A stretch of 64,000 nt of DNA, from assembly GCA_000508305.1 (NCBI GenBank), contig CP006977.1, positions 186,001 to 250,000 on the forward strand, given 5' to 3'. Both the position numbers and the translations under genes were made by a program. Below the pieces are notes generated by a model. That model ran no database searches. It saw only the letters and a program-made list of their open reading frames with translations, and was not told the origin of the DNA. Shown here piece by piece: positions 8,687 to 10,873 of this stretch (its first letter is position 1; each line of letters opens with the position of its first letter). Source of the DNA: Sulfolobus acidocaldarius SUSAZ. GTDB taxonomy: Archaea > Thermoproteota > Thermoprotei_A > Sulfolobales > Sulfolobaceae.

Positions 8687-8965
8687 TTACAACCTGATAA
8701 AAGAATTACAAACCTCGCCTTTTAAGGCGGGGAGTGGGTCAGATGCAACGTTTGGTATCTTTATCTCTCTCACTACTTCCCCTAGGCTCCAACTTAAGAG
8801 GAAACCTAACGCTAGAATTAAGCCAAGTCTTATCCAAAGAATATTGTCAGGAGTAAAAATTCCATTATTCAATTGACTAGATTGAAGCACTCTCAGTATG
8901 TAATTTATAATTCCAAAGGCTACAATAGAGGATAGAAGAATTATGATGAACTTTTGTAACTTCAT
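8687..8965 (-). CDS. Small membrane protein with a C terminus read from a hairpin repeat
   Basis: 92 residues with two transmembrane segments at about 5-25 and 44-62, then a basic cytoplasmic-like tail. The last 16 or so residues (SDPLPALKGEVCN) are translated from the IS605-type hairpin at 8713-8742, so the original C terminus was probably replaced when that repeat arrived. ATG 8965 has a strong TATA box 21-31 bases upstream. No family recognised. Confidence 0.5.
   Translation of the reverse strand: MKLQKFIIILLSSIVAFGIINYILRVLQSSQLNNGIFTPDNILWIRLGLILALGFLLSWSLGEVVREIKIPNVASDPLPALKGEVCNSFIRL
8713..8742 (+). repeat. IS200/IS605-type end hairpin, copy 1
   Basis: CCTCGCCTT and AAGGCGGGG form a nine-base-pair stem (one T-G pair) with a TT loop, followed by AGTGGGTCAG. 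The same order, stem then GTCAG tail, recurs at 59001, 60361 and, inverted, 61684. No tnpA or tnpB is adjacent. Confidence 0.6.
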
Positions 8966-9045: not shown

Positions 9046-9246
9046 GTAAATTCATAGAAAACCTAAATGAGTTTTATCCTACATCAAGAATTCATCATAT
9101 CAATTTTTGAATCATTTCTCCAAATAATTTATAAGTAATGACTCTTACTCTTTAATCTAATACATTTCCAATTCTTCTAAAAACAACTCAAAATATAGGA
9201 GAGATTTTCCATAAAATCTTTTAAGTAAATAGATCATATTATAAAT

Positions 9247-10314
9247 ATGTTCTCTTCTGATCCGTCTGTGCAAGCGAGGAAAGAAAAGTTAGATAAAGAG
9301 GAGGAGGTAAGAGCACTACGAGGAGCTTTGATGGCAGAGTTAGACGCAATAAACTACTATCTTCAACAAGGTAAGCTTTTTGAGAACGAACATCTTAAGA
9401 GGGTTCATGAAGATATTGCGAAAGAGGAAATAGCCCATTTTGGAGAGTTTCTAAGGCTACTGTATGAGGTTAGTAAAGAGGATTTTGATTACATAGTTAA
9501 AGGTTGGAAGGAAGCATCAGAACTTATAGGAAGCGGACATGAAATACCAATTCCACGTGGACAAGTGAATGATGATAAGGACAGTGAGCATAAAGAGGAT
9601 AAAACTGATAGTTATCAAAAGGAGCCCTCTGTGGAGGAGATAATTCATGAGGCTTTAAAGCAAAGAAAAATAAGATATGCTGGGACTTTAAGGAGTTACC
9701 CTGATGAGAGCATTTCTCTATTTGGATTTGAGGAGACTGAGAGAGAAGTAACACAGAAAATGGACTCACAACTTTATAAGATAGAGTATTTGAGTGTGGA
9801 GTTCAAAATTAGGAGTGACTTACCTGTAAACAGGACTTTAAATATCATACATAGAGCAGGGGTAAAGTACTCCCTTATGGAAGATGAATTATTACTCTCC
9901 AAGCATCCCTTGTCAATTATAGAAAGGGGTAGGAAAGAAAAAGCATCAGATTGGGATATTCCAGGTAGTATTGCAAACGATATAATAAGAGGAGTACAGA
10001 TCCTAGAGACAAACGGATACTCTGACCCTGTTACGATAATCTCCCCTGAGCTCTACACAAGGCTTTTCCGCGTTTATGATAAGAGTGGTACTTATGAAAT
10101 AAAGTTAGTGAAGCATGCTACAGACATTATAGTATCTCCTTTAATTAGGGGCTTAGCTGTTGTGTCAAAGAAAGGGTTCTACATCATGGAGAATACTCTA
10201 GTTAAGGTAGAGTTTCTAGGAAGAGAAGGGATTAATAGTGATTATATTATATGGGGGAAGATTGCTCCGTACTTAATTGATACTAATGCTGCAGTTGTAT
10301 TTCTTCGCCAATAA
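9247..10314 (+). CDS. Ferritin-like domain fused to an encapsulin shell protein
   Basis: 355 residues in two parts. Residues 15-95 form a ferritin-like helical pair with metal ligands E31 (AELDAINYY) and E61/H64 (KEEIAHFGEF). A charged linker (about 105-128) leads to an HK97-fold shell domain, 128-355: VEEIIHEALKQRKIRYAGTL, a central basic region and the C-terminal DIIVSPLIRGLAVV...WGKIAPYLIDTNAAVVFLR. This is the family 1 encapsulin fusion layout known from Pyrococcus furiosus. The shell self-assembles into a compartment, and the fused domain would face inside and oxidise and store iron. It has its own upstream region and a convergent neighbour overlapping its 3' end by 32 bases. Confidence 0.88.
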   Translation: MFSSDPSVQARKEKLDKEEEVRALRGALMAELDAINYYLQQGKLFENEHLKRVHEDIAKEEIAHFGEFLRLLYEVSKEDFDYIVKGWKEASELIGSGHEIPIPRGQVNDDKDSEHKEDKTDSYQKEPSVEEIIHEALKQRKIRYAGTLRSYPDESISLFGFEETEREVTQKMDSQLYKIEYLSVEFKIRSDLPVNRTLNIIHRAGVKYSLMEDELLLSKHPLSIIERGRKEKASDWDIPGSIANDIIRGVQILETNGYSDPVTIISPELYTRLFRVYDKSGTYEIKLVKHATDIIVSPLIRGLAVVSKKGFYIMENTLVKVEFLGREGINSDYIIWGKIAPYLIDTNAAVVFLRQ

Positions 10315-10873
10315 ATAGACTGTCTAGTATTCTTTCTCTAAAATCTAGAATTTTTTCACTGAAATATAAATATTCACTTAAGTCTGCACCCTTAAAGAAC
10401 TCACTAATCTCATTCACTGTCTCCTTGAGAATTACATTCCTGTTTTGTTTGTCTAAGGATTTAATTATCTCAACTCCTTCCAAATAACTTTCTTTATCTG
10501 ACCATAACTTGAACCTTGTAACAGGTTTGTGCAATATCTCCTGAACGTAATACAGTGGTTTCCAAGCTAACAATACATGACCATGGTCTATGATATATCC
10601 ATAATTATTCTTGGATAGGATATGATCCTCTTTTAAATCAATATTTAGTAGCCACTCCTCAAAGGCTAAAGCCCTCTTTAGCTCTTTCAGGTTTTTCACT
10701 TCAAATGTGGCTCTATCCGGTAGGTAATCCATTACAATCCCCTCACTGGCGACCTCTAAATCAAGGACAGGCATTCCTAAAACTCTTCCTATTCTTGAGG
10801 CAAACAACTCGGATATCACTTCATATTTTGCATGAATGTCATCCTCCTCTTTGAACCTTTTCAGAAACTTCAT
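10283..10873 (-). CDS. HipA-like / atypical kinase-fold protein
   Basis: 196 residues. The order of motifs suggests a small HipA/PI-kinase-like catalytic core: a helix YEVISELFASRIGRVLGMPV, hinge IVMDYLPD (about 46-53), catalytic-loop-like NIDLKEDHILSKN (77-89) with D83 and N89, and metal-binding-like YIIDHGHVLLAW with D96. It is half the size of HipA and lacks the HipA N-terminal domain and an HTH partner. It could phosphorylate a protein or small molecule. It overlaps the encapsulin gene tail to tail; a link is possible but unproven. Confidence 0.6.
   Translation of the reverse strand: MKFLKRFKEEDDIHAKYEVISELFASRIGRVLGMPVLDLEVASEGIVMDYLPDRATFEVKNLKELKRALAFEEWLLNIDLKEDHILSKNNYGYIIDHGHVLLAWKPLYYVQEILHKPVTRFKLWSDKESYLEGVEIIKSLDKQNRNVILKETVNEISEFFKGADLSEYLYFSEKILDFRERILDSLFIGEEIQLQH

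What the first reader, a model, noticed from the sequence alone, without database searches (positions are those of the whole stretch)
9247..10314. Encapsulin shell fused to its own ferritin-like cargo in a thermoacidophile
One gene encodes a ferritin-like helical pair with visible metal ligands (E31, E61, H64), a charged linker and a full HK97-fold encapsulin. Each shell subunit would carry iron-oxidising cargo inside. The linker at about 105-128 is strongly charged. An iron compartment stable near pH 2-3 outside and high temperature would be of interest; this seems the most complete new-type system in the window.
Basis: partly seen in the sequence, partly recalled or inferred. Interest (0 to 1): 0.75.

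Follow-up and report, generated by a model that had tools for sequence, protein, structure and literature searches.

The report
Known ferritin-fused encapsulin of Sulfolobaceae
The gene really encodes an iron-oxidising ferritin-like domain joined to a virus-like protein shell, but this fusion is an already described kind found across many archaea, including other heat- and acid-loving relatives, so it is a sound annotation rather than a discovery.

Summary
One 355-residue ORF (9247-10314, +) encodes an EncFtn-type ferritin-like domain (about 1-97), a charged disordered linker (about 98-128) and a complete HK97-fold encapsulin shell (about 129-355). A family profile aligns end to end with the Pyrococcus furiosus virus-like particle 2e0z (E 3.7e-83), the AlphaFold model's best PDB match is 2e0z, and E31/E61/H64 match the known EncFtn di-iron ligands E32/E62/H65. 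The ligands are conserved in all but one relative, and the gene is under purifying selection.

The claim of a 'new-type system' fails. Archaeal Flp-fusion encapsulins are a published subgroup of Family 1, mostly crenarchaeal; P. furiosus and Sulfolobus solfataricus members are reported as T=3 shells. Homologues occur in 17 of 31 family genomes. The 'pH 2-3 outside' point is not relevant to a protein with no sign of export. The gene stands alone; its neighbours are conserved only within the genus.

Side results: the acidophile copies form a clade with Thermoplasmata, suggesting transfer; within Sulfolobaceae the gene is often absent, pseudogenised or interrupted by a transposon; one species keeps an intact shell with a ligand-less ferritin domain. 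Interest is low.

The parts
9247..9537 (+). EncFtn/Flp ferritin-like domain, residues 1-97; helices 17-44, 48-75, 77-94; di-iron ligands E31, E61, H64
9538..9630 (+). charged, disordered linker, residues about 98-128
   Evidence: pLDDT below 50 at 101-124; composition; most variable part of the alignment
9631..10314 (+). HK97-fold encapsulin shell domain, residues about 129-355, with stop codon
   Evidence: Pfam Linocin_M18; profile match to encapsulin shells; Foldseek best hit 2e0z
9217..9225 (+). possible archaeal TATA box (CTTTTAAGT) about 22 bases before the ATG, compatible with a short or absent leader
   Evidence: read directly in the sequence; inference only

Best explanation
This is a Family 1 Flp-fusion encapsulin. 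The C-terminal domain assembles into an icosahedral shell (most likely T=3, 180 subunits, by homology). The N-terminal ferritin-like domain is thereby held inside, where pairs of subunits form di-iron ferroxidase centres (E31, E61, H64 from two chains) that oxidise Fe2+ and deposit Fe3+ in the shell for iron storage and protection from oxidative stress. Shown here: domain order, full-length homology, ligand conservation, predicted shell fold, purifying selection. Inferred from relatives: assembly, T number, cargo placement, ferroxidase activity and physiology.
For: Full-length profile match to 2e0z, E 3.7e-83, and to 5n5e over profile positions 2-97. The AlphaFold model's best PDB match is 2e0z (TM 0.83 by target length). 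Ligands E31/E61/H64 are conserved in all but one of the 60 aligned sequences where the region is present and equal E32/E62/H65 of R. rubrum EncFtn (PMC5012862). The D-x3-EE-x-A(T)-H motif said to be typical of archaeal fusion-FLPs is present as D56..E60 E61 I62 A63 H64 (PMC11202242). dN/dS against the congener is about 0.09 overall and 0.02 in the ferritin domain. Published Flp-fusion encapsulins of P. furiosus and S. solfataricus form T=3 capsids with internal Flp (PMC8346489).
Against: No biochemical data for this protein. Identity to P. furiosus is low (about 20% in the shell by structure alignment). How 180 fused Flp domains pair inside a shell is unresolved even for P. furiosus (PMC11202242). 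The genome also has a ferritin-family gene and rubrerythrin-family genes, so the encapsulin need not be the main iron store.
Confidence: 0.93

Rival explanations
1. The HK97-fold domain is a captured viral capsid gene or provirus remnant rather than a cellular compartment.
For: Encapsulins share the HK97 fold with tailed-phage capsids, and phage-like genes near the S. solfataricus encapsulin have been reported (PMC7355545 citing Heinemann 2011).
Against: No match in 50,697 phage records and no capsid family in PHROGs. Best profile and fold matches are encapsulins, not phage capsids. The gene is fused to a ferritin-like domain in dozens of archaea. The adjacent genes examined are metabolic, transport or unknown.
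Confidence: 0.03
2. The shell has a role other than iron oxidation in Sulfolobaceae, and the ferritin domain is partly dispensable.
For: In G022 (same family) the fused domain lost E61 and H64 (K and Q) while the shell still scores strongly as Linocin_M18.
Against: In the window protein the ferritin domain is the most constrained part (dN/dS about 0.02) and all ligands are kept. G022 sits on a long branch (1.07), as expected of a decaying gene.
Confidence: 0.04

Closest known systems
Pyrococcus furiosus Flp-fusion encapsulin / virus-like particle (PDB 2e0z; Flp domain 5n5e)
   Same: Same domain order, similar length (345 vs 355 aa), same di-iron ligands, charged linker, shell fold
   Different: Low sequence identity; falls in a separate, well-supported clade of the tree
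Sulfolobus (Saccharolobus) solfataricus Flp-fusion encapsulin
   Same: Reported Flp-fusion T=3 shell (PMC8346489); relatives in the window's family are mostly 38-47% identical over nearly the full length
   Different: Different species and genomic neighbourhood; the S. solfataricus record itself was not compared by name here
EncFtn/EncB cargo with separate shell (R. rubrum, M. xanthus, H. ochraceum)
   Same: Same ferritin-like fold and ferroxidase ligands
   Different: There the cargo is a separate protein loaded by a C-terminal targeting peptide

Membership tests
Family 1 encapsulin, Flp-fusion subgroup | HK97-fold shell domain of the Linocin_M18/encapsulin family | tested here: met
   Pfam above cut-off; profile and fold matches to encapsulin shells. 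NCBIfam encap_f1 matched below its cut-off.
Family 1 encapsulin, Flp-fusion subgroup | N-terminal EncFtn/Flp domain in the same polypeptide | tested here: met
Family 1 encapsulin, Flp-fusion subgroup | Di-iron ligands Glu, Glu, His (R. rubrum E32, E62, H65) | tested here: met
   E31, E61, H64 in the window; conserved in relatives
Family 1 encapsulin, Flp-fusion subgroup | Archaeal fusion-FLP motif D-x3-EE-x-A/T-H | tested here: met
   D56-IAK-E60-E61-I-A63-H64 (motif from PMC11202242)
Family 1 encapsulin, Flp-fusion subgroup | Self-assembly into an icosahedral shell with internal cargo | not testable with these tools
   needs purification and electron microscopy
Family 1 encapsulin, Flp-fusion subgroup | Ferroxidase activity and iron storage | not testable with these tools
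   needs an assay

The most novel reading that the evidence does not exclude
In Sulfolobaceae the encapsulin shell can outlive its ferroxidase: one species (G022) keeps a full fused shell whose ferritin domain has lost two of three iron ligands, which might mean that the shell serves a second purpose unrelated to iron oxidation in this lineage, including in the window's organism.
Probability: 0.07. Interest if true: 0.45.

Novelty: already known. Interest (0 to 1): 0.15.

Why it matters
It confirms a well-conserved Flp-fusion encapsulin in a thermoacidophile whose congener carries a 95% identical copy, so it could be a convenient native system for studying how fused ferritin domains pair inside a shell, which the literature calls unresolved. 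By itself it adds a member, not a kind.

Tried and rejected
A scan of genome contigs with the single sequence found no relatives because the patterns were too specific; repeating it with the family alignment worked. A conserved operon was sought: flanking genes (Rieske protein, unknown proteins, LysO exporter, MFS transporter and others) are conserved beside the gene only in the congener (a weak MFS match in one other genus is not counted), so no partner gene is supported. A phage or provirus origin was checked and not supported. Standalone Flp genes in other archaea were checked for an adjacent shell; none was found in the stretches held, apart from split frames in L049 and L086 and the broken G146 copy.

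Full report
Observation. The window holds one ORF of 355 codons at 9247-10314 on the + strand with an ATG start. It is the only copy in the genome, a 2.06 Mb single contig. A congener, G032, has a 95% identical orthologue. G032 is 2,225,959 bases long, which from memory is the size of the Sulfolobus acidocaldarius DSM 639 genome; this name was not verified.

Ferritin part. Residues 5-97 match NCBIfam EncB_fam (E 3.5e-13) and residues 15-83 match ferrit_encaps (E 2e-11), both below the models' curated cut-offs. The P. furiosus Flp domain 5n5e matches with E 3.2e-14 over residues 3-95. The model has helices 17-44, 48-75 and 77-94 with pLDDT mostly in the 80s, the EncFtn pattern. E31, E61 and H64 sit where R. 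rubrum EncFtn has Glu32, Glu62 and His65, the residues shown to bind iron between two chains (PMC5012862). The D-x3-EE-x-A/T-H motif of archaeal fusion-FLPs (PMC11202242) is present.

Shell part. Pfam Linocin_M18 is matched above its cut-off, but only over profile positions 100-248, so completeness was tested further. A profile of 28 relatives aligns with 2e0z from position 1 to 360 (E 3.7e-83) and with shell-only encapsulins over about 117-360. The predicted model (mean pLDDT 83.4, shell blocks 83 or above) has 2e0z as its best PDB match, with TM 0.83 by target length, followed by other encapsulin shells. pTM is 0.62, as expected with a flexible linker between two domains.

Linker. Residues 101-124 have pLDDT below 50. 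The stretch 98-130 has 10 acidic and 5 basic residues of 33; the matching stretch of P. furiosus is also charged (7 and 4 of 28), so it is not unusual.

Selection. Against the G032 orthologue (60 base and 16 residue differences) dN/dS is about 0.086 overall, 0.02 in the ferritin part, 0.18 in the linker and 0.10 in the shell (few substitutions, so the per-domain values are rough). This indicates a functional gene whose ferritin domain is the most constrained part.

Surroundings. The upstream gene (8687-8965, -) is divergent and the downstream gene (10283-10873, -) is convergent, overlapping the 3' end by 32 bases, so the gene is probably transcribed alone. A possible TATA box lies about 22 bases before the ATG (inference). 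The neighbours are conserved in the congener only.

Distribution and tree. Relatives occur in 91 of 147 genomes sampled from the order (some matches are to standalone Flp genes only) and 17 of 31 in the family. In a maximum-likelihood tree the Sulfolobaceae proteins and two Thermoplasmata proteins form one group apart from the other archaea including P. furiosus (100/100), which suggests transfer among acidophiles; the root is a midpoint and direction is not shown. The gene decays repeatedly in the family: six in-frame stops in G146, a Mutator-type transposase inserted after about residue 56 in G153, a 319-residue truncated copy in G141, and loss of E61 and H64 in G022 with an intact shell.

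Comparison with what is known. PMC8346489 describes archaeal Flp-fusion encapsulins, mostly crenarchaeal, with P. furiosus and S. solfataricus members as T=3 capsids holding Flp inside. The 2024 structural review treats fusion-FLPs as one of four classes (PMC11202242). The window gene meets every defining feature that could be tested. It is a further member of a known subgroup, and the subgroup had already been studied in S. solfataricus.

Mechanism and open points. Best reading: a cytoplasmic icosahedral shell that carries its own ferroxidase. Assembly, triangulation number, iron content and physiological role are inferred.

Noticed in passing
L012:1495-2529 (G022, same family): Flp-fusion encapsulin whose ferritin domain has lost E61 and H64 (K and Q) and other usual residues nearby, while the shell scores more strongly as Linocin_M18 (84 bits) than the window's (53 bits). 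It is on a long branch. Either decay or a shell without ferroxidase.
   Followed up: partly
L141:2181-3284 (G153), L011 (G146), L008 (G141): Encapsulin genes broken in species of genus g4: one by a Mutator-family transposase insertion, one by six in-frame stops; a third is truncated to 319 residues.
   Followed up: partly
L034:498-1514, L035:6965-8014, L049:6986-7992, L086:6965-7991: Thermoplasmata contigs (L034, L035, Thermogymnomonas L086) and an uncultured archaeon (L049) carry Flp plus encapsulin sequence. L034 and L035 group with Sulfolobaceae in the tree, suggesting horizontal transfer among acidophiles. In L049 and L086 the frame appears split.
   Followed up: partly
L036:1513-1872 and L037:105-464: Nearly identical contigs binned as Micrarchaeota and as Marsarchaeota encode a standalone Flp domain 63% identical to the window's, with no shell gene found on the stretches held; at least one bin assignment is probably wrong.
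   Followed up: partly
L123-L130, and L072 and many of L077-L110: Many archaea have a standalone Flp of about 100 residues without a shell gene nearby, like the short FLPs (s-FLP) described in bacteria.
   Followed up: partly
window 10283-10873 (-): Unknown 196-residue protein, convergent with and overlapping the encapsulin gene's end by 32 bases; weak matches to PHROG families 3162 (E 2.4e-5) and 11186 of unknown function.
   Followed up: no
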